From: Polynucleobacter sinensis
Lineage (GTDB): Bacteria > Pseudomonadota > Gammaproteobacteria > Burkholderiales > Burkholderiaceae
Direction of reading: 5' to 3'
DNA length: 64,000 nucleotides
Assembly (NCBI RefSeq): GCF_001595985.1
Contig: NZ_LOJJ01000003.1
Span: 186,001-250,000, forward strand
In this document: piece after piece, positions 50,124-57,958 of the stretch
How the letters are laid out: each line of letters starts with the position of its first letter
Numbering within the stretch: the stretch's first letter is position 1
The notes under the pieces: generated by a model
Seen by the model: only the letters and a program-made list of their open reading frames with translations
The model's database searches: none
Told to the model about the DNA's origin: nothing
Translations under genes and position numbers: made by a program

Positions 50124-50172
50124 TATTTGGCTCCTCGACCTGGGCTCGAACCAGGGACCTACGGATTAACAG
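50124..50172. repeat. Left attachment repeat (tRNA-Asn 3' fragment)
   Basis: All 49 bases are identical to 57879-57927. The match starts just outside the tRNA 3' end and runs to the anticodon loop; the bases then diverge (AGATG here, TCCGG in the intact tRNA). The fragment lacks the 5' half and cannot make a tRNA. Confidence 0.93.
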
Positions 50173-50253: not shown

Positions 50254-50499
50254 CTATTTTGAGGTTTTGGCTTCAGTAAGTTTGATCATTTTCGATGGCT
50301 CAATATTCAAAGCCTTAGCCAACTTAAATATGACGCTAATCGTAGGTTGATTTCTGCCTAGTTCTATGAGGCTTACATAGTTACGCTCGATACCAGCCTC
50401 AAAAGCGAGATTTTCTTGGGTAAATTCCGCTTTTTTTCGTAATTCACGCAGAACAATGCCAAATGCTTTGCCAGGAGAGGTGTCTTTATATTTGCCCAT
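50254..50499 (-). CDS. XRE-family regulator
   Basis: An 81-residue single-domain HTH protein. The HTH spans about residues 13-68 (FGIVLRELRKKAEFTQENLA, then GIERNYVSLIELGRNQPTI), like the small controller proteins of restriction-modification systems. ATG 50499 is preferred; a TTG four codons upstream is in frame. No SD is seen, and the start codon lies inside a 22-bp palindrome, which suggests self-repression and possibly a leaderless message. It is divergent from the Mrr-type nuclease operon. Confidence 0.83.
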   Translation of the reverse strand: MGKYKDTSPGKAFGIVLRELRKKAEFTQENLAFEAGIERNYVSLIELGRNQPTISVIFKLAKALNIEPSKMIKLTEAKTSK

Positions 50500-50512
50500 T
50501 ATGTTGGGCAAA
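50491..50512. promoter_or_regulatory. Palindromic operator over the XRE start codon
   Basis: Perfect 8-bp arms TTTGCCCA (50491-50498) and TGGGCAAA (50505-50512) with a 6-bp centre TTATGT. The XRE start codon (complement of 50497-50499) is inside it. The position and symmetry suit an XRE dimer repressing its own gene (inference). Confidence 0.65.
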
Positions 50513-50606
50513 CTTTGACCTAGATGCTATTCTGTGTCTTCACAATATATTATGAATTTTATTACTGTTTATCTTCTCGCTGTCCAATAAATAAGGGTTA
50601 TCAGTT

Positions 50607-52322
50607 ATGCACTCCGAAATTGAGGAATTTAAAATTCGACACTCAATCTCAGGAATCCCTTTATGTTTTTATTCGATTGTGGATGGAAAGACTTTAGATA
50701 GAAAAGCAAAAGTAAGTAGTCGACAGGAATTGGATGTTGTACTAGAGACAAATGGATTGCGCTCAAGTTGGGATCAACAGTGGGAGGAAATTTCAAGACT
50801 CACTAATCCCGAGACAAATCAATATGTTGATCGGGGGCACATAAACAAATTTTTTGTTGCTCTTGCTAAAGAGTTAACCGAAGAGGCTGAGGAAAAGGTT
50901 GGCAAAATCCAATCTATATTGGTAGATGGGATAGATTCATCGGAGGGTTCTATTTGGGATATATTATGGAACTTTTATTTCTTCAATGATCCTGCGCTTA
51001 AGAATTCTAGTAATGAGGAATTAAGCGAGCCAATTGCCACTCTTTCAGAGCCAGAGCCGAATATTTCGGATCAAAAATATAAAGTAAGCCTTGGTTTAAT
51101 TGACAGATTGATTGGCAAATCTAGCCAAAAAAGCAACTTCAATACTGCATTATTTGAATCAGATCATTCCTCTTGGCTGGAGAGAAGGAGGTTGGCTGAG
51201 GCTAAGGTCAAGTCAGCCAATGAAGCTCTTCAAAAATGGGAGCAGAGGGAGGCTGAGAATGCAAGGCTATTGAAGGCTAGATCTAAGGCTATCGATGAAT
51301 TAAAGTCTCAATATGAAGCTGGAAACGCTGATGCAATAGTGGAGTATTGCGATATAGCATTAGGAATGTCGAACTTTCCAGATTGCATTCAAAATATTTA
51401 CGATCTTGAATATACGCCATCAACTCAAACTCTTTTGATTGAGTTTTTACTACCTAATGTTGAGGATCTTCCTAAAATAAAGGAGTGGAAATATACGGCA
51501 ACAAAAGGTCTTCTATCTGCAAAGGAATTGAGTGTAGCCGACCTCAATAAGCTATACGATGAGGCTATTTATCAAATATCTTTAAGGGTCATTCATGAAA
51601 TATTTGACTCGGATAAGGGTAACTATATTGATGGGATAGTCTTCAATGGTAGGGTTGTGTTTACTAATAAAAGCACAGGGCATGAAGAATCAGCCTGCAT
51701 AATTTCCATACAGGCATCAAAAGATGAGTTTTTAGCTATCAACCTATCAAAAGTCGTTGCTAAGGACTGCTTTAAGTTGCTTAAGGGTGTTGGGAGCTCA
51801 AAGTTGCACGGAATGTCTGCAATTGCCCCAGTTATGAGTATGAGGCGTGAAGATGGTCGTTTTGTGTCGGCTCAAGAGGTGGCAAGTACTGTCAATGAAT
51901 CGACAAATTTAGCTGCAATGGATTGGCAAGACTTTGAGCATCTCATTAGGGAAATCTTTGAAAAAGAATTTTCAATCAATGGGGGTGAGGTCAAGATTAC
52001 TCAAGCCAGTAGAGATGGTGGGGTGGATGCTGTTGCCTTTGATCCTGATCCAATTAGGGGTGGGAAAATTGTTATTCAAGCTAAGCGATACACCAATACT
52101 GTGGATGTATCAGCTGTCCGTGATTTGTGGGGTACTGTAGATCATGAGGGGGCAATGAAAGGAATTCTTGTTACCACTTCCGATTATGGCCCTGATGCGT
52201 ATAACTTTATTAAAGGTAAGCCTCTTGTTCTTTTAAATGGTGCGAATTTATTACATCTTTTGGAAAAGCATGGGCATAAGGCTCGTATTGATATTCAAGA
52301 AGCAAAATTAATGAACGGATAA
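50607..52322 (+). CDS. Coiled-coil plus Mrr-type PD-(D/E)xK nuclease
   Basis: A 571-residue protein. Residues 1-190 form an N-terminal region I do not recognise. Residues about 195-245 are a charged coiled coil (WLERRRLAEAKVKSANEALQ). Residues about 250-430 are a mixed alpha/beta middle domain. Residues 438-555 are an Mrr catalytic fold with FEHLIREIFE (Glu444), SRDGGVDAVAFD (Asp470, Asp474) and VIQAKRY (Gln491, Lys493). Mrr-type nucleases cut DNA, often modified DNA. No methyltransferase is present, so a modification-dependent or otherwise regulated defence nuclease is likely. It starts the cargo operon. Confidence 0.82.
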   Translation: MHSEIEEFKIRHSISGIPLCFYSIVDGKTLDRKAKVSSRQELDVVLETNGLRSSWDQQWEEISRLTNPETNQYVDRGHINKFFVALAKELTEEAEEKVGKIQSILVDGIDSSEGSIWDILWNFYFFNDPALKNSSNEELSEPIATLSEPEPNISDQKYKVSLGLIDRLIGKSSQKSNFNTALFESDHSSWLERRRLAEAKVKSANEALQKWEQREAENARLLKARSKAIDELKSQYEAGNADAIVEYCDIALGMSNFPDCIQNIYDLEYTPSTQTLLIEFLLPNVEDLPKIKEWKYTATKGLLSAKELSVADLNKLYDEAIYQISLRVIHEIFDSDKGNYIDGIVFNGRVVFTNKSTGHEESACIISIQASKDEFLAINLSKVVAKDCFKLLKGVGSSKLHGMSAIAPVMSMRREDGRFVSAQEVASTVNESTNLAAMDWQDFEHLIREIFEKEFSINGGEVKITQASRDGGVDAVAFDPDPIRGGKIVIQAKRYTNTVDVSAVRDLWGTVDHEGAMKGILVTTSDYGPDAYNFIKGKPLVLLNGANLLHLLEKHGHKARIDIQEAKLMNG

Positions 52323-52325
52323 GCT

Positions 52326-52763
52326 ATGAATGCAATAAAGTATTTTTTGGTTCTTGTATTTTTCGCTTTGAGTGTTGGTTGCTCGACAACACCAACGCCA
52401 TCCTCCGAAGCTATCCCCACTCCCAAGGATCGAGTTCTAGCCTTTCAGGATAAGTCAGCAGATAAAACATCTGTCATAGTGGTTACGAGAGATCAAGGAT
52501 TTGTGGGTGGCGGGTGCTTTTATGCCGTCTCAATTGATTCAATCCTCTCTGCTAGGTTGGATGTCTCTGAAAGAGCGCAGTTTTATTTAGCTCCAGGAGA
52601 GCATTTATTAAAGGCAGGAAGAGACCCGCAGGGTGGTGGTTTGTGCGGTCTTGGTTCAGATATGTGGGTGCAAAGAGAGACTACACTTAAGGCTGGGGAG
52701 ACTAAATATTTTCGCTTCTCCATTGATATGAATGGAACGCCTGATATACATAGGGCAGATTGA
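52326..52763 (+). CDS. Lipoprotein in the nuclease operon
   Basis: A 145-residue lipoprotein with signal peptide MNAIKYFLVLVFFALSVGCS (lipobox SVGC, Cys19). The mature part holds FYLAPGEHLLKAGRD and a Gly/Cys-rich turn GGGLCGLG, resembling DUF2846-like envelope lipoproteins. It starts 3 bp after the nuclease stop, so it is almost certainly cotranscribed. A lipoprotein downstream of a DNA nuclease is unusual for a restriction system. Confidence 0.72.
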   Translation: MNAIKYFLVLVFFALSVGCSTTPTPSSEAIPTPKDRVLAFQDKSADKTSVIVVTRDQGFVGGGCFYAVSIDSILSARLDVSERAQFYLAPGEHLLKAGRDPQGGGLCGLGSDMWVQRETTLKAGETKYFRFSIDMNGTPDIHRAD

Positions 52764-52764
52764 T

Positions 52765-52992
52765 ATGGCAAATGATAATAATGACAAGTCTGAATCCCAG
52801 TTACTTTGGGATACAGTTGCTACGGCAGGAAAAATTGCAATGGTAGTTGTCTTATTGATTGGTGGATGCATATATCTCGGTAGCGACGATAAGCGCCCAG
52901 CATGGGATAAGGCGGTTGCAGAAAAAAATAAAAATTGCTCAGTCGCTAAACAGATAGGAAATATTAAAAATATTTCTCTTTACTGCAATTAG
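52765..52992 (+). CDS. Small single-span membrane protein
   Basis: A 75-residue protein. It has a charged N-terminus (MANDNNDKSESQ), one transmembrane helix (about 23-43, IAMVVVLLIGGCIYLG) and a basic C-terminal part ending in ISLYCN. ATG 52765 lies 1 bp after the lipoprotein stop. Function unknown. It is the last gene of the nuclease-lipoprotein operon and converges on the small genes at 53128-53735. Confidence 0.62.
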   Translation: MANDNNDKSESQLLWDTVATAGKIAMVVVLLIGGCIYLGSDDKRPAWDKAVAEKNKNCSVAKQIGNIKNISLYCN

Positions 52993-53127: not shown

Positions 53128-53301
53128 CTAAAGTGTCTTCAAATAGCGGAGTAATTCAGCCTTATCAATACAACATACAAGCCCTGTAGAAGTAATGGCT
53201 TTGTAGCCTCCTGTAGCCACAAAGTCGATGTTGGTCTTCCTTCTTGACGGCTTACCCTTACTTTTTCTTTCGTGGCTTCTTGGTTCGTTTAATTGAGTCA
53301 T
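53128..53301 (-). CDS. Possible 57-residue protein overlapping the next gene's tail
   Basis: An uninterrupted frame of 57 codons from ATG (complement 53299-53301) to TAG (53128-53130). It has a basic, hydrophilic N-terminus (QLNEPRSHERKSKGKPSRRK) and a more ordered C-terminal half (VATGGYKAITSTGLVCCIDK, AELLRYLKTL). It overlaps the 3' end of the 53258-53491 gene by 44 bp in the +1 frame. The composition looks protein-like and it fills an otherwise empty stretch. No clear SD; translation would depend on coupling. No family recognised. Confidence 0.5.
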   Translation of the reverse strand: MTQLNEPRSHERKSKGKPSRRKTNIDFVATGGYKAITSTGLVCCIDKAELLRYLKTL

Positions 53302-53491
53302 CTTCTATGCCCATCTGCTTAGCAAAAAAGCTAATCACTAGCCTGCCAATCGCTTGTGCCTGCCTGCTTTCAATTAAATCCTCTTCGGTAGGCTTTTCAC
53401 CTACTGCGTAAAATTTGATCAATGCAGGCTTCTGAAATAAGCGTTTGTGGCGGATTTCAAGTAGCTCTAAGCGTCTATCAAGCCTAGGCAT
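53258..53491 (-). CDS. Small hypothetical protein, element-encoded
   Basis: A 77-residue basic protein. It has an N-terminal helix with heptad-like leucines (RLDRRLELLEIRHKRLF) and a Lys/Arg-rich C-terminus (KRTKKPRKKK). It overlaps the upstream gene by 8 bp (53484-53491), indicating coupled translation. I do not recognise the family; the basic tail suggests nucleic-acid contact. Confidence 0.6.
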   Translation of the reverse strand: MPRLDRRLELLEIRHKRLFQKPALIKFYAVGEKPTEEDLIESRQAQAIGRLVISFFAKQMGIEDDSIKRTKKPRKKK

Positions 53492-53735
53492 TGCGTTGAT
53501 CTTCCAAAGCTTTGATGCGTGATTCCACAGTACTACCTTCGATGACTCTGCCGATCAAACTGAGTATGTTTGCGAGCTTTGAGGCGTCTCCAATTTCTAT
53601 CGATTGGTCACGGCTAGCTCGATAAACCTTACTTAATTCTTGCCTCACTTGTTCCATGGTCTTGAGTGGGCGGTGTCTGCGGGCAGGGGCTTTTTGTTCT
53701 AGGGTCGGTAATTTAACGACTTTTTGGGTATTCAT
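53484..53735 (-). CDS. Small hypothetical protein, element-encoded
   Basis: An 83-residue protein. The segment RPLKTMEQVRQELSKVYRAS (about 22-41) with ASKLANILSLIGRVIEGSTV (about 50-69) resembles small helical proteins often found beside terminase or packaging genes in prophages. No terminase is present here, so the resemblance is only suggestive. It is predicted to be helical and overlaps the following gene by 8 bp. Confidence 0.6.
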   Translation of the reverse strand: MNTQKVVKLPTLEQKAPARRHRPLKTMEQVRQELSKVYRASRDQSIEIGDASKLANILSLIGRVIEGSTVESRIKALEDQRNA

Positions 53736-53780: not shown

Positions 53781-54494
53781 TTAGATTGAAGCCTTTAAAG
53801 CGCCAACTAATTCGGCTTGTGCGTTATCGGCTAACTCTTGCTCTCGCTCAATCTCACGCATTCGCTTGGAGTCCATAAATGCCTTTAATCCATTTTGATA
53901 AGCCCTCATGAATGAGACAACGGATGAGCTATAAATATCGTCCAAGTTTTTTCGCTCTTTAAGAAGTTCATGAGCATGCTGTCCGAAGTAAATGCTGAAA
54001 TGGGATTCTTTCTCTCCTTCGGCCAATCCTGAAAGAAAAGCGGGGGCTTCATAGATTGCACCTAAGACTGATGATTCATTCTTTTTAACCAAGTCGAGCA
54101 TTTTGTTTGTCCTATGCTCGGATGACATTTCCTTAAGAGATCTGCGGATTTCATCCCCAAAATTTGAGGGTGCCGATAAACCTGTAGAGCGCAAAATCTC
54201 ATTTTCTACTTGCAAGTAATAGGATCGATAGAACTCAAAGAGTTGATCGTTATCTTTTTGCCATTTTTGTAGAAGCATATTTGCTTGATTGCTGACACGC
54301 AGAAAGTGGGATTCTGGCGTCTCTCGTGGTGATTTAAGCTCTGCTGATTTGGCTAGTGCATCGAATAGGCTGGTTAGGTTATTGACCTTGGCTCGGATAC
54401 CCTGAGCGCCTTGCCGATTTGTATAGCCTTCTAAATTGCTGTCAATGCGGTTAGCAATGAATTTTAATGCTCCGGTTTTGTGATTAACTACCAT
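53781..54494 (-). CDS. Helical hypothetical protein, element-encoded
   Basis: A 237-residue protein that is almost entirely helical by composition, with charged and Gln-rich stretches (KWQKDNDQLFEFYRSYYLQV) and a C-terminal coiled-coil-like region (MREIEREQELADNAQAELVG). No signal peptide. GGAGAAGTAAAC precedes the ATG. Its leader contains the 9-bp repeats at 54594-54629. No family recognised. Confidence 0.6.
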   Translation of the reverse strand: MVVNHKTGALKFIANRIDSNLEGYTNRQGAQGIRAKVNNLTSLFDALAKSAELKSPRETPESHFLRVSNQANMLLQKWQKDNDQLFEFYRSYYLQVENEILRSTGLSAPSNFGDEIRRSLKEMSSEHRTNKMLDLVKKNESSVLGAIYEAPAFLSGLAEGEKESHFSIYFGQHAHELLKERKNLDDIYSSSVVSFMRAYQNGLKAFMDSKRMREIEREQELADNAQAELVGALKASI

Positions 54495-54681: not shown

Positions 54682-55686
54682 TCATACTTCGCAACTTTGC
54701 AGGTGTGCGGAAGCCTCTGCACTTATCAATGAATATATGAGGCCGTTTTTGGGTGCTTTAGTTGCAATCCATAAAGGTGCATCCCCACTTGAGTAAGCTC
54801 TTAAGACCTTATCGATATTTCTTCGTGTGAAGCCATTTCCCATAGTCTTGGCTACTGCCTCTAACTCTGTAGGGGAGCGTTCTTTAATCATTAAGCTCTT
54901 TTTAATGAAGTTGATCATGGGCTGATCTTTTGCGAGTTGGTCAGAGAGAGCCTTTTTTAACTTTATGTCTTCATAGGGAATTATTTGAATTATTCGATCC
55001 TTGCCATTAATAGTGAAGGTTATATCTTTCACCTCGGCACGGCACTTATCCATATCAGTTGATACTCTTAGTCCCCCATCAATTTTTTCACTTACAAGGT
55101 AATACAGTTCATCCACATCATTGCGGATATCCCCAGTCCCCTCGAATACCAACTTTCCAGCGTTGTCCTGATGTTTATTTGTATGTCCGAGGCAAATAAC
55201 TGTGACTCCCTTCGCAGTTAAGGCTCTAAGGGTTTTTAGAAATCCCTTTACCTTATTCTTTCCAATTACATCCACAAACTTTTTAATTGTGTCAATCACA
55301 ATCACAAGGTAATTAAAATCCTCGTTGGATTTAGCCATCTCCTCTAAAATTTTGACCACACCCTCACTCGATAGATTGTTTAGGTCAGGGGCAATCAGTC
55401 TGTACCCATTTGCCATTGCATGATTGTGATAAAACTTTAAGTCAGGGGCTGAGGCATCTGCATTGATATACATAACCTCAAAACCTGCTCTAACCATCTC
55501 AGCCGAGGCGTGAATCGCAAATGCTGTTTTACCCGTATTGCCTGGCGCACAAATCATGATGAGATGACTCATGGGTATCAACCTCAAATAGCAATACCCT
55601 GTATCTTGAATATTTTTCATCATGGCGTCTGTGGTCTGTTGTTCATAGAATTTTTCTAGGATGCTCCGAGGCTCTGTATTTGACAT
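54682..55686 (-). CDS. RecA-fold ATPase, RepA/AAA_25-like
   Basis: A 334-residue P-loop ATPase. Walker A is APGNTGKTAF (about 47-56) and Walker B YLVIVIDTIKKF (Asp132), with a sensor-like CLGHTNKHQD (about 165-174). This architecture matches RepA-like hexameric helicases of plasmids and integrative elements (RSF1010 RepA/AAA_25). The C-terminal third (about 250-334) has a winged-helix feel (RSPTELEAVAKTMGNGFTRR). A replication role for the excised element is likely. A TTG three codons upstream is in frame. Confidence 0.8.
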   Translation of the reverse strand: MSNTEPRSILEKFYEQQTTDAMMKNIQDTGYCYLRLIPMSHLIMICAPGNTGKTAFAIHASAEMVRAGFEVMYINADASAPDLKFYHNHAMANGYRLIAPDLNNLSSEGVVKILEEMAKSNEDFNYLVIVIDTIKKFVDVIGKNKVKGFLKTLRALTAKGVTVICLGHTNKHQDNAGKLVFEGTGDIRNDVDELYYLVSEKIDGGLRVSTDMDKCRAEVKDITFTINGKDRIIQIIPYEDIKLKKALSDQLAKDQPMINFIKKSLMIKERSPTELEAVAKTMGNGFTRRNIDKVLRAYSSGDAPLWIATKAPKNGLIYSLISAEASAHLQSCEV

Positions 55687-55691
55687 GGTGA

Positions 55692-55910
55692 TCAATCGCC
55701 CTGTAAGGCTCTCTGACCTATGATCACGACTGCATTGTCAAATGCGAGCTCGTTCACCATAAGTTTTCGAGTTGGCCATGAGAGGGCATTCAATTCCATT
55801 AAGGTTTCCCTTTGTGTTCTTACAAACCACTCAAGCGATGCCTTTGACGGAAAAATATGACTCCTAGATTTTTGATAATCCTCCATACTGAGTAAGTTAT
55901 TTAATGCCAT
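55692..55910 (-). CDS. Small hypothetical protein upstream of the ATPase
   Basis: A 72-residue protein (starts MALNNLLSMEDYQKSRSHIF) with GAGGAAAG before the ATG. Its stop is 5 bp from the ATPase start, so the two are translated together. No clear HTH, although its position matches small regulators or excisionases in other elements. Function unknown. Confidence 0.6.
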   Translation of the reverse strand: MALNNLLSMEDYQKSRSHIFPSKASLEWFVRTQRETLMELNALSWPTRKLMVNELAFDNAVVIIGQRALQGD

Positions 55911-56117: not shown

Positions 56118-56771
56118 TTAGTCTTTTAAGTAATAGACCCTTACAGGTTTCATTCGTTCAAACAAATCATGTTTTGGTGGATTCTTTGCATCGCCTAAAA
56201 GATATTTTCTTGGGGTGGTGGGATTCGGCATGGTATCTTGCCTGACCCATGCATTATTTTTTCCGTCACCCAATTTATTCCCATTTAAGTCTTTATATTC
56301 GGATAGAAATTTGAAGAAATGTTTTGGTGGATCAATTTCCTCAATTCGCAAGCTCTCACTTATAGCCCTATGTTCTTTGGCTAAAAAATTAGCTGTTATG
56401 TAGTAATCAGGCTTTCCCCCAGCTTCTTGATATTCTTTTAAAGCGATGGTCTCTCTGTGCATCCAGCCCTGAAGATGAGCCCAAATTGAAGGAAATCTTT
56501 TTTCATAAAGCTCATCCCACTCTCTAGGTGGGTTATCTGCCTCATATTTTTTGATCCTTTCACTTTGATTCTTTATAACCTCAACTTGGTACAAAAGAAA
56601 TGTCTTTAGGTGGGGATAATCAGCCTGTAGGCGCTTGCTTTCTTTAATTGCAGTAAGTAGGCTATCTTCAATATTATTGGGCGTTATGTTGGTCAAATTA
56701 ACTCCCAATTCCTCCAGCATATCTAAAAATAGGGCAGGGCAACCACTCTGTTCAAAATTTAGTACTCTCAT
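56118..56771 (-). CDS. Hypothetical protein cotranscribed with integrase
   Basis: A 217-residue protein of unknown family with helical N-terminal two thirds (LEELGVNLTNITPNNIEDSL, QVEVIKNQSERIKKYEAD). It has an aromatic middle (EKRFPSIWAHLQGWMHRE) and a Pro-rich C-terminus (MPNPTTPRKYLLGDAKNPPK). Its ATG follows the integrase stop by 9 bp with AGGAG between, so it is translated after integrase. A role in integration, excision or directionality is possible but not shown. Confidence 0.6.
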   Translation of the reverse strand: MRVLNFEQSGCPALFLDMLEELGVNLTNITPNNIEDSLLTAIKESKRLQADYPHLKTFLLYQVEVIKNQSERIKKYEADNPPREWDELYEKRFPSIWAHLQGWMHRETIALKEYQEAGGKPDYYITANFLAKEHRAISESLRIEEIDPPKHFFKFLSEYKDLNGNKLGDGKNNAWVRQDTMPNPTTPRKYLLGDAKNPPKHDLFERMKPVRVYYLKD

Positions 56772-56780
56772 AGTTGCTCC

Positions 56781-57800
56781 TTATCTAATTTCACCTAGAA
56801 CACGATTAATCAATTTCGTCTTGTGATCCGAACAGAGATGCGAATATCTCTTCGTCACATTAAGTTGCCTGTGACCCAAAACTTCGCCTATCTCCAATAA
56901 AGTACATCCGTTCTGAGCCAGCATCGAGGCGCATGTATGTCTGAGATCATGGAATCTAAAGTTTTTAATATTAGCCATCTTCAAGGTTTTATACCAAATA
57001 TCAACAAAACTAAAAGCTGAGTCTGGCCTTCTTTTTGAGGCAAATACCAACTCTTGTGGATTGCTTGTTTTGAATTTGTTTAGTTCATCAATCACTGAAG
57101 GTATTAAAGGAAGATTCTTTTTATCTCCGTTCTTGGTTTGATGAACAGAGGCGATTTGACGCTCAAAATCAATGTCGCCCCAGGTAAGCCTAAGAAGCTC
57201 TCCACGCCTTGCGCCTGTTGTTAGGGCAACCATCACAAGTAGATAGAGTTTGTCCCATGTAGAAGCTCTACAAGCGTTTAATAAGGCAGTGCGCTCACTC
57301 TCGCTTAAAAATCTAACAACCTCATTATTTTCAGGTCTTGATTCGATTCCCTTGCAAGGATTCTCATAGCCTTTAGGGGTGAGCCTTTTCTTAATGCACC
57401 AAGTGAATAGACCTCCAATAGAGGCGCTGTAGCGGTTGATTGTGGCAGGCGAGAGGGTCTTGCCCTTAGCCTTGTGAATATCCCTGCCATCAGCATCCTT
57501 GCCAGCATAAAAGCGACTCTTTTGGGTCTGTAATTCCTCTAGGGCAAAGAAAATATGGTCTTCATCGACTTCGGCAAGGGTGAGGTGACCTAGCTTTACG
57601 CTCCACCATTGCATACGCTGGCCTCTGCTGGTATCTCTACCTGCATAGCTTTGCATAAACAAATTAATTGCTTCTCTAATCGTGATTTGCCCAGTGCGTA
57701 GCATGCCCAAAGGCACGCTACTAGGGACTTCTAGACTACTTTGCGCTGTGCCGGAAAACACTAACGCTGTATTACCAACGGACTGAAAATTACTTTCCAT
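56781..57800 (-). CDS. Tyrosine recombinase (integrase)
   Basis: A 339-residue phage-type integrase. It has an N-terminal SAM-like core-binding domain (about 35-140). The catalytic domain has Arg198 (TTGARRGELLRL), Lys223, His284 and Arg287 (FHDLRHT), His310 (LGHR) and nucleophile Tyr319 (KRYSHL). AGGAG precedes ATG 57800; a start 13 codons earlier is also open. The gene begins 83 bp downstream of tRNA-Asn on the same strand, with no terminator between, so readthrough from the tRNA may drive it. Confidence 0.93.
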   Translation of the reverse strand: MESNFQSVGNTALVFSGTAQSSLEVPSSVPLGMLRTGQITIREAINLFMQSYAGRDTSRGQRMQWWSVKLGHLTLAEVDEDHIFFALEELQTQKSRFYAGKDADGRDIHKAKGKTLSPATINRYSASIGGLFTWCIKKRLTPKGYENPCKGIESRPENNEVVRFLSESERTALLNACRASTWDKLYLLVMVALTTGARRGELLRLTWGDIDFERQIASVHQTKNGDKKNLPLIPSVIDELNKFKTSNPQELVFASKRRPDSAFSFVDIWYKTLKMANIKNFRFHDLRHTCASMLAQNGCTLLEIGEVLGHRQLNVTKRYSHLCSDHKTKLINRVLGEIR

Positions 57801-57878
57801 TTTTAAGCTCCTGTTCCAATCTCCGTGAAATTCACCCACGGATTAAGTGGAAGCCTAAGAAATGCCCGCCAATATAGG

Positions 57879-57927
57879 TATTTGGCTCCTCGACCTGGGC
57901 TCGAACCAGGGACCTACGGATTAACAG
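57879..57927. repeat. Right attachment repeat within tRNA-Asn
   Basis: The 49 bases identical to 50124-50172, here forming the 3' part of the intact tRNA-Asn (from the anticodon loop to the CCA) plus 4 bases beyond. Identity stops in the anticodon region, consistent with strand exchange there. Confidence 0.93.
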
Positions 57928-57958
57928 TCCGGCGCTCTACCGACTGAGCTATCGAGGA
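57883..57958 (-). tRNA. tRNA-Asn (anticodon GTT)
   Basis: A 76-nt cloverleaf on the minus strand. The acceptor is TCCTCGA/TCGAGGA and the anticodon loop CTGTTAA gives anticodon GTT. The T-arm is CCTGG-TTCGAGC-CCAGG, with encoded CCA. Its 3' half is the element's att sequence, so integration regenerates a complete tRNA. It lies 21 bp from the divergent thiD start. Confidence 0.96.

What the first reader, a model, noticed from the sequence alone, without database searches (positions are those of the whole stretch)
50607..52992. Mrr-type nuclease operon with lipoprotein and membrane protein, no methyltransferase: possible new defence system
The cargo operon encodes a coiled-coil plus PD-(D/E)xK nuclease with a new N-terminal and middle region, then a lipoprotein (3-bp gap) and a single-span membrane protein (1-bp gap). 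A DNA nuclease tied to two envelope proteins is not a pattern I know from restriction or type IV systems. The envelope proteins could sense infection or exclude superinfecting phage while the nuclease cuts DNA.
Basis: inference. Interest (0 to 1): 0.72.

Follow-up and report, generated by a model that had tools for sequence, protein, structure and literature searches.

The report
Anti-phage nuclease cargo in mobile island
A small mobile DNA island in a bacterium carries a DNA-cutting enzyme of a known, widespread family next to an envelope protein whose relatives are carried by phages; the three genes are not a conserved machine, but look like swappable anti-phage cargo under a shared switch.

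Summary
The three-gene operon is real: a 571-aa Mrr-type nuclease, a lipoprotein (3-bp gap) and a single-span membrane protein (1-bp gap). It lies in a 7.8-kb integrated island bounded by a perfect 49-bp repeat at tRNA-Asn. It is not a conserved three-part system: none of 81 loci fetched for nuclease relatives has a lipoprotein or membrane-protein homologue. The nuclease belongs to a widespread family that PADLOC labels type IV (PDLC03663, E 2.9e-53). In 7 of 13 viral-contig loci it sits just downstream of a phage-type repressor. The lipoprotein has relatives in 63 phage records. The island's replication protein groups it with islands of the same genus, several with terminase or capsid genes, so it may be a phage satellite. 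Their cargo slots swap restriction-type nucleases and lipoproteins; one has a homologous lipoprotein directly behind a different nuclease (HNH-HIT). A palindromic operator beside the XRE gene is shared. Best reading: repressor-controlled anti-phage cargo, nuclease and exclusion-type lipoprotein acting separately. Defence activity is inferred, not shown.

The parts
50124..50172 (.). distal attachment repeat (49 bp, identical to 57879-57927)
   Evidence: the repeat finder D1, 100%
50254..50499 (-). XRE/C-protein-like regulator, divergent from the cargo operon
   Evidence: HTH_3 E 8.2e-14; PADLOC HTH_VI 4.9e-15, Control_protein 8.5e-13; 76% and 73% identical to XREs of sibling islands L130 and L135; the listed ORF starts at TTG 50511, ATG at 50499
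50491..50512 (.). putative operator 1, perfect 8-bp arms, overlapping the XRE start codon
   Evidence: 1 match in the window with up to 2 mismatches, chance mean 0.02
50536..50557 (.). putative operator 2, conserved in sibling islands and in two viral contigs beside XRE homologues
50607..52322 (+). Mrr-type nuclease: N-terminal domain, coiled coil, middle beta-rich domain, PD-(D/E)xK domain
52326..52763 (+). lipoprotein, phrog_890; DUF2846 only below its cut-off (E 0.01)
52765..52992 (+). 75-aa single-span membrane protein, no convincing relative
53258..53491 (-). small island protein, unknown
53484..53735 (-). small island protein, unknown
53781..54494 (-). 237-aa island protein, unknown
54682..55695 (-). 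AAA_25 replication-type ATPase (RepA-like), marker of the island family
   Evidence: AAA_25 E 4.1e-9; relatives at 39-45% identity in 12 other genomes of the genus
55692..55910 (-). 72-aa island protein, unknown
   Evidence: no PHROGs hit
56118..56771 (-). 217-aa island protein, unknown
56781..57839 (-). tyrosine integrase
   Evidence: Phage_integrase E 1.3e-30
57879..57927 (.). tRNA-side attachment repeat, overlapping the 3' part of tRNA-Asn (57883-57958, -)

Best explanation
The operon is accessory anti-phage cargo of a small integrated, probably phage-satellite-like island. The nuclease is a stand-alone, type IV-like enzyme: a coiled coil probably makes it a dimer, the N-terminal and middle domains recognise the target, and the C-terminal Mrr domain cuts foreign (probably modified or incoming phage) DNA without a partner methyltransferase. 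The lipoprotein is a separate phage-type exclusion lipoprotein working at the envelope; the small membrane protein is an accessory of unknown role. An XRE regulator of the restriction-controller kind binds the two palindromes between itself and the operon and times cargo expression. Shown: the operon, the island boundaries, conserved catalytic residues, family memberships, the shared operator-like sequence, the repressor-adjacent position of about half of the viral relatives. Inferred: defence activity, substrate, dimerisation, the exclusion role of the lipoprotein, control by the XRE.
For: Perfect 49-bp repeat at tRNA-Asn plus integrase. Mrr_cat 2.6e-31 with D474, Q491, K493 invariant in 24 of 24. 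Nuclease domain matches AspBHI Z 11.2, rmsd 2.7, 123 aligned, and MspJI Z 10.4, rmsd 2.6, 120 aligned. PADLOC mREase_IV 2.9e-53. Relatives beside a helix-turn-helix repressor in 7 of 13 viral-contig loci and directly after a gene annotated as LexA-family regulator on a Pseudochrobactrum plasmid. Lipoprotein relatives in 63 of 50,697 phage records: among tail genes in three phages looked at, directly after the repressor in Vibrio phage H20. Lipoproteins encoded in the structural cluster of other phages exclude phages (PMC11893012, section 3.7 read whole and passages), though homology to those was not shown. Sibling islands carry terminase or capsid genes and different nucleases in the cargo slot. 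Operator-like palindromes shared; a scan of the viral contigs for one of them hit 2, both next to XRE homologues.
Against: No packaging or capsid gene was recognised in the window's own island, so 'satellite' rests on its relatives. No activity has been measured. 6 of the 13 viral loci lack a Pfam-confirmed repressor within two genes upstream. The Bacillota loci in genome contigs, L004 apart, show no repressor neighbour by eye. No nuclease relative was found in the 50,697 phage records. A tight operon could mean joint function, and L128 repeats a nuclease-lipoprotein pair. A distant (about 25% identical) form occurs in 28 genomes of one genus of the family sample, which could be a resident function.
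Confidence: 0.6

Rival explanations
1. The three proteins form one entry-exclusion device: lipoprotein and membrane protein hold or sense an incoming phage at the envelope and the nuclease cuts its DNA as it enters.
For: 1- to 3-bp gaps. A homologous lipoprotein again directly follows a nuclease in L128, with two further exported or membrane proteins behind it. Six distinct nuclease relatives of 54 full-length ORFs have a predicted N-terminal transmembrane helix, two of them in the same genus. The membrane nuclease SNIPE is a precedent (PMC13190303, passages).
Against: None of 81 loci fetched for nuclease relatives has lipoprotein or membrane-protein homologues. The L128 nuclease is of another kind (HNH-HIT). 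The lipoprotein occurs in phages without an annotated nuclease neighbour.
Confidence: 0.18
2. The nuclease is an abortive-infection effector: an internal sensor (middle domain) detects a phage protein and the nuclease degrades host and phage DNA.
For: Middle domain conserved but without a clear solved match (best Z 7.4); control by a controller-type XRE would suit a toxic enzyme; repressor-linked position in viral relatives.
Against: The nuclease domain is closest to those of modification-dependent restriction enzymes; no toxicity data.
Confidence: 0.13
3. The nuclease serves the island itself (replication, excision or packaging) or cellular DNA repair, not defence.
For: Some viral relatives lie near integrase-like genes; the nuclease domain also resembles the repair nuclease EndoMS (Z 8.5).
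Against: Six other delimited sibling islands lack this nuclease and carry other cargo; only 7 of 186 genus genomes have any match, 4 of them beyond the Mrr domain.
Confidence: 0.08

Closest known systems
PADLOC mREase_IV (PDLC03663), predicted type IV methyl-directed restriction enzymes
   Same: Residues 192-559 match profile positions 165-530 of 544; a Ureibacillus relative matches 35-531.
   Different: The first 190 residues are not aligned to the model; no substrate known; the model's label may itself be a prediction.
MspJI / AspBHI modification-dependent restriction endonucleases
   Same: Nuclease domain fold, Z 10.4-11.2 over 120-123 residues; no partner methyltransferase seen.
   Different: Their recognition domain (SRA-like, recalled) was not recognised here; this protein has a coiled coil and an unassigned middle domain.
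SNIPE membrane-bound anti-phage nuclease (PMC13190303, passages)
   Same: Variable N-terminus with or without a transmembrane helix, elongated middle, conserved C-terminal nuclease.
   Different: Different nuclease (GIY-YIG there); no profile match of the middle domain to DUF4041 proteins (hhalign probability 0.8%, 9 columns); the window's protein has no predicted transmembrane helix.
Anti-phage hotspots of phages and their satellites (P2/P4; PMC9122126, abstract and outline seen)
   Same: Small island with integrase, replication protein, regulator and a variable cargo slot holding restriction-type genes.
   Different: Other gene set and host; no packaging gene found in this copy.
Phage superinfection-exclusion lipoproteins (PMC11893012, section 3.7)
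   Same: Lipoprotein relatives encoded inside phage tail or repressor regions.
   Different: Homology to the tested Lpp021/Lpp010 not shown; here the gene is on an island without tail genes.

Membership tests
Type IV (modification-dependent) restriction enzyme | nuclease domain with conserved catalytic residues | tested here: met
   Mrr_cat 2.6e-31; D474, Q491, K493 invariant in 24 of 24
Type IV (modification-dependent) restriction enzyme | no cognate methyltransferase in the operon or island | tested here: met
   none among 10 island proteins scanned, nor the eleventh
Type IV (modification-dependent) restriction enzyme | cuts modified but not unmodified DNA | not testable with these tools
   needs biochemistry
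Type IV (modification-dependent) restriction enzyme | recognisable modified-base reader domain | tested here: inconclusive
   no Pfam domain above cut-off in residues 1-430; middle domain best Z 7.4
SNIPE | DUF4041 plus GIY-YIG nuclease | tested here: not met
   DUF4041 not reported by Pfam at E <= 1; hhalign of the middle domain with 3 DUF4041 proteins 0.8%; nuclease is Mrr type
SNIPE | predicted transmembrane helix (66% of SNIPE homologues per the paper) | tested here: not met
   none in the window's protein; 6 distinct relatives have one
Phage satellite (PICI-like) | integrase, att repeats, regulator and replication-type gene, no full phage structural set | tested here: met
Phage satellite (PICI-like) | packaging or capsid-redirecting gene | tested here: inconclusive
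   none recognised here; terminase or capsid hits above cut-off in siblings L128, L133, L136, L138
Phage satellite (PICI-like) | mobilised by a helper phage | not testable with these tools
   needs induction experiments
Superinfection-exclusion lipoprotein | lipoprotein signal and phage distribution | tested here: met
   lipobox Cys19; 63 phage records
Superinfection-exclusion lipoprotein | blocks phage adsorption or DNA entry | not testable with these tools
   needs phage assays
Conserved three-gene defence system | homologous genes recur together | tested here: not met
   0 of 81 loci fetched for nuclease relatives with a lipoprotein or membrane-protein homologue, 0 of 27 lipoprotein loci with the nuclease, at E <= 0.01

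The most novel reading that the evidence does not exclude
A two-layer exclusion cassette of phage satellites: an interchangeable DNA nuclease is paired with an exclusion lipoprotein and small envelope proteins under one controller-type XRE switch with a conserved double operator, so the satellite blocks rivals at the envelope and cuts what gets in. Within the same nuclease family some members have the membrane anchor built into the enzyme, giving an Mrr-based counterpart of SNIPE.
Probability: 0.2. Interest if true: 0.72.

Novelty: new member of a known kind. Interest (0 to 1): 0.45.

Why it matters
It puts a large family of coiled-coil Mrr nucleases, for which I found no functional study in my searches, in a testable setting: beside phage-type repressors and in satellite-like cargo slots, with a shared regulatory switch. 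If the nuclease and lipoprotein protect together, it would show satellites assembling envelope and DNA-level exclusion as swappable modules. It also suggests that tethering nucleases to the membrane may have arisen in a second nuclease fold.

Tried and rejected
Rejected: a conserved three-gene system. Rejected: relation of the middle domain to DUF4041 of SNIPE (a profile of only 3 close sequences, so a weak test). No solved structure matches the nuclease by sequence at E <= 1. Structure search of the middle domain gave only middling matches, best CamS-type Z 7.4; absence of a family from such a list is not evidence. The viral structure library's hits at E <= 0.001 were entries named restriction endonuclease, unnamed or uncharacterised. 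No nuclease relative in the phage collection. XRE and lipoprotein queries found nothing in viral contigs. Sigma-70 and terminator scans gave no more sites than shuffles. Literature searches for Mrr type IV with coiled coil, Ter-linked Mrr proteins, DUF2846 with exclusion and mEp390 with exclusion showed no direct report on these proteins in the listings. A post hoc count of predicted lipoproteins in cargo ORFs that I picked by hand (6 of 25; the script's seventh, in the membrane protein, I discounted) against other ORFs (5 of 99) gave p 0.009; I treat it as weak.

Rows dropped or missed: four loci (L055, L059, L060, L061) gave no tblastn hit at 1e-5; of the 61 loci L002-L062, 57 matched and 55 of those have at least 700 bases downstream of the match. 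L066 and L097 gave no clean ORF. Part of the output was cut; L016-L020 were shown again. L035/L089, L036/L091, L034/L090, L037/L092 and L039/L096 are the same genes and are counted once in '6 of 54', while the 81 loci include these repeats. L159 looks like the same locus as L004 (same ORFs), and L002 and G406 look like the same genome (coordinates agree); from the latter I infer that the genus is Polynucleobacter. The list was cut, so its count is a lower bound.
Full report
Observation. They lie inside an island bounded by a perfect 49-bp direct repeat, 50124-50172 and 57879-57927. The right copy overlaps the 3' part of tRNA-Asn 57883-57958, next to a tyrosine integrase. The island is 7.8 kb. 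The same tRNA-Asn is an integration site elsewhere: at least 8 of 41 genomes of the genus examined, own included, have a second exact copy of this repeat (in one of them, 48 of its 49 bases) on the same contig, about 4 to 43 kb away (list cut).

The nuclease. Mrr_cat covers residues 436-552 at E 2.6e-31. The PADLOC model mREase_IV PDLC03663 covers 192-559 at E 2.9e-53. In an alignment with 23 relatives, whose record titles name Bacillus-type, Polynucleobacter, planctomycete, Bradyrhizobium, Granulicella and other bacteria and one archaeal MAG, D474, Q491 and K493 are invariant. The AlphaFold model (pLDDT 80.5, pTM 0.58) shows a small N-terminal beta-alpha part, a long helix 172-237, a beta-rich middle domain and the nuclease domain. 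The nuclease domain matches AspBHI (Z 11.2, rmsd 2.7, 123 aligned) and MspJI (Z 10.4, rmsd 2.6, 120 aligned). The middle domain folded alone (pLDDT 82.7) has no match above Z 7.4. So the protein is a member of a broad family with a known nuclease domain and an unassigned recognition region.

Is it a three-gene system? No homologue of the lipoprotein or membrane protein was found at E <= 0.01 in any of 81 loci fetched for nuclease relatives: L002-L062, 13 viral loci, two plasmid loci and five larger stretches of genomes already counted. Flanks are up to 8 kb in L002-L033 and about 1.5 kb in L034-L062. The nuclease was not found in 27 loci around lipoprotein relatives. In the family sample 67 of 299 genomes have a nuclease match, many only to the Mrr domain, and 14 of 299 a lipoprotein match; five genomes, own included, have both, and in G082 the two are 24 kb apart on one contig. 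In the genus the nuclease has a match in 7 of 186 genomes, in 4 beyond the Mrr domain, and the lipoprotein in 3 of 186. The membrane protein has no convincing relative in 186 genomes (best E 0.0024, to part of an 815-residue frame).

What recurs. Relatives of the island's RepA-like ATPase at 39-45% identity in 12 other genomes of the genus led to sibling islands (one more distant locus, 33%, was fetched too). Several carry phage packaging or capsid genes: Terminase_4 in L128 and L133, Sf6_terminase in L138, Terminase_6N in L136, Phage_capsid in L133 and, just under cut-off, in L131. Repeats delimit six of them: L128, L130, L132, L135, L136 and L137 (in L135 the exact repeat is only 16 bp). Cargo slots hold different nuclease-type proteins: HNH-HIT in L128, MrcB_N plus NOV_C in L132, HSDR_N in L135, an RNase_T exonuclease and a NUMOD3 protein in L136, SAD_SRA-HNH in the undelimited L139. 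In L130 and L137 none was recognised among the proteins scanned; L137 has a formyltransferase. Predicted lipoproteins lie in the cargo of the window, L128, L130, L132 and L135, 5 of 7 delimited islands. In L128 the lipoprotein is a 31%-identical homologue (E 1.8e-14) that overlaps the end of the HNH-HIT gene by four bases and is followed by an exported and a two-span protein. Thus the pairing 'nuclease, then lipoprotein, then small envelope proteins' recurs once with the homologous lipoprotein and more loosely with unrelated parts.

The switch. The XRE gene of the window is 76% and 73% identical to those of L130 and L135 and resembles restriction controller proteins (PADLOC Control_protein 8.5e-13). 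The XRE-cargo spacer keeps two palindromes in the window, L130 and L135 and, degenerately, in L136; L137 shows neither. Each occurs once in the window, with chance expectation 0.02 and 0.00 at the mismatches allowed. A scan of the viral-contig collection for the second palindrome gave 2 hits, and both lie next to an XRE homologue, 62% and 56% identical. This supports an operator of the XRE, with different cargo behind it.

Where the nuclease sits in viral contigs. Thirteen loci encode relatives. In 7 of 13 a helix-turn-helix regulator above the Pfam cut-off lies within two genes upstream on the same strand: L159, L163, L164, L165, L166, L167 and L169; I tested candidates in eight loci, the other five having none by eye. 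In L159 and L166 it carries Peptidase_S24 (CI/LexA type), and in L167 an IrrE-type peptidase (Peptidase_M78) lies between. L162 looks alike by eye but had no Pfam hit. On a Pseudochrobactrum plasmid the nuclease follows a gene annotated as LexA-family regulator. No relative was found in the phage collection. That lysogeny-expressed genes beside the repressor often serve superinfection immunity is established knowledge, recalled here.

The lipoprotein. It is phrog_890 and has relatives in 63 of 50,697 phage records. In mEp390, CharmingMan and phiAH14a it lies among tail genes, in phiAH14a between genes annotated K and I; in Vibrio phage H20 it directly follows the repressor; in SSU5 it is behind a helicase gene and a hypothetical gene, near partition genes. 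PMC11893012 (section 3.7 read whole; passages of the rest) reports that lipoproteins encoded in the structural cluster of mEpimmI phages exclude phages. I did not show that those are homologous to this one.

Mechanism. I therefore read the operon as satellite- or prophage-type exclusion cargo. The nuclease probably acts alone on modified or incoming DNA; the lipoprotein probably acts at the envelope; the XRE probably sets timing. Steps shown: sequence anatomy, families, contexts, conserved operator-like sequence. Steps inferred: every biochemical activity. The bolder reading, a coupled envelope-plus-nuclease device, is kept alive by the L128 pair and by six distinct relatives (L029-L032, L035, L036; of 54 full-length ORFs, window included) with a predicted N-terminal membrane helix, two of them in the same genus. 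That layout resembles SNIPE (PMC13190303, passages), although DUF4041 was not found.

Novelty. The nuclease family is already in a defence database by label, satellites with defence hotspots are known (PMC9122126, abstract and outline), and exclusion lipoproteins are known. The listings showed no paper on this island family. New here are a group of satellite-like islands in this genus with a shared double operator and interchangeable nuclease and lipoprotein cargo, and the frequent repressor-linked position of this Mrr family in viral contigs. I score it a new member of a known kind.

Noticed in passing
L168 1782-7077: A 405-aa Mrr-family protein with a predicted N-terminal membrane helix is encoded directly after a phage tape measure gene (TMP_3, 1.4e-20).
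   Followed up: no
L035/L089 and L036/L091 (same genus): Relatives with an N-terminal transmembrane helix sit beside a small exported protein that resembles one in the sibling locus L131, 7871-8179 (by eye).
   Followed up: partly
L128 6069-7073 (-): An HNH nuclease fused to a HIT domain, in the cargo slot of a terminase-bearing island.
   Followed up: partly
L139 880-1836 (-): An SRA-HNH protein (SAD_SRA 1.2e-49), a modification-dependent restriction layout, in a locus with a sibling RepA.
   Followed up: no
L158 4937-8013: A nuclease relative is followed by a second protein with a weak Mrr-domain match (1.6e-4) and a small HNH-like protein (by eye), suggesting a defence cluster.
   Followed up: no
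L016 10146-11150: A patatin-like gene (by eye) lies two ORFs downstream of a nuclease relative, possibly a neighbouring defence gene.
   Followed up: no
L095 3620-7600: The lipoprotein homologue in G247 lies beside a 1019-aa gene that looks like Cas9 by eye; no domain search was run.
   Followed up: no
L070, L071, L077-L079, L098: Lipoprotein homologues lie 35 bp behind a porin-like gene (by eye), possibly an independent envelope role of this lipoprotein family.
   Followed up: no
L038-L062: A distant form (about 25% identical, middle plus nuclease domain) occurs in 28 genomes of one genus of the family sample and may be a resident gene there.
   Followed up: partly
window 57879-57958: tRNA-Asn is a recurrent integration site in the genus: second exact repeat copy on the same contig in at least 8 of 41 genomes.
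   Followed up: partly
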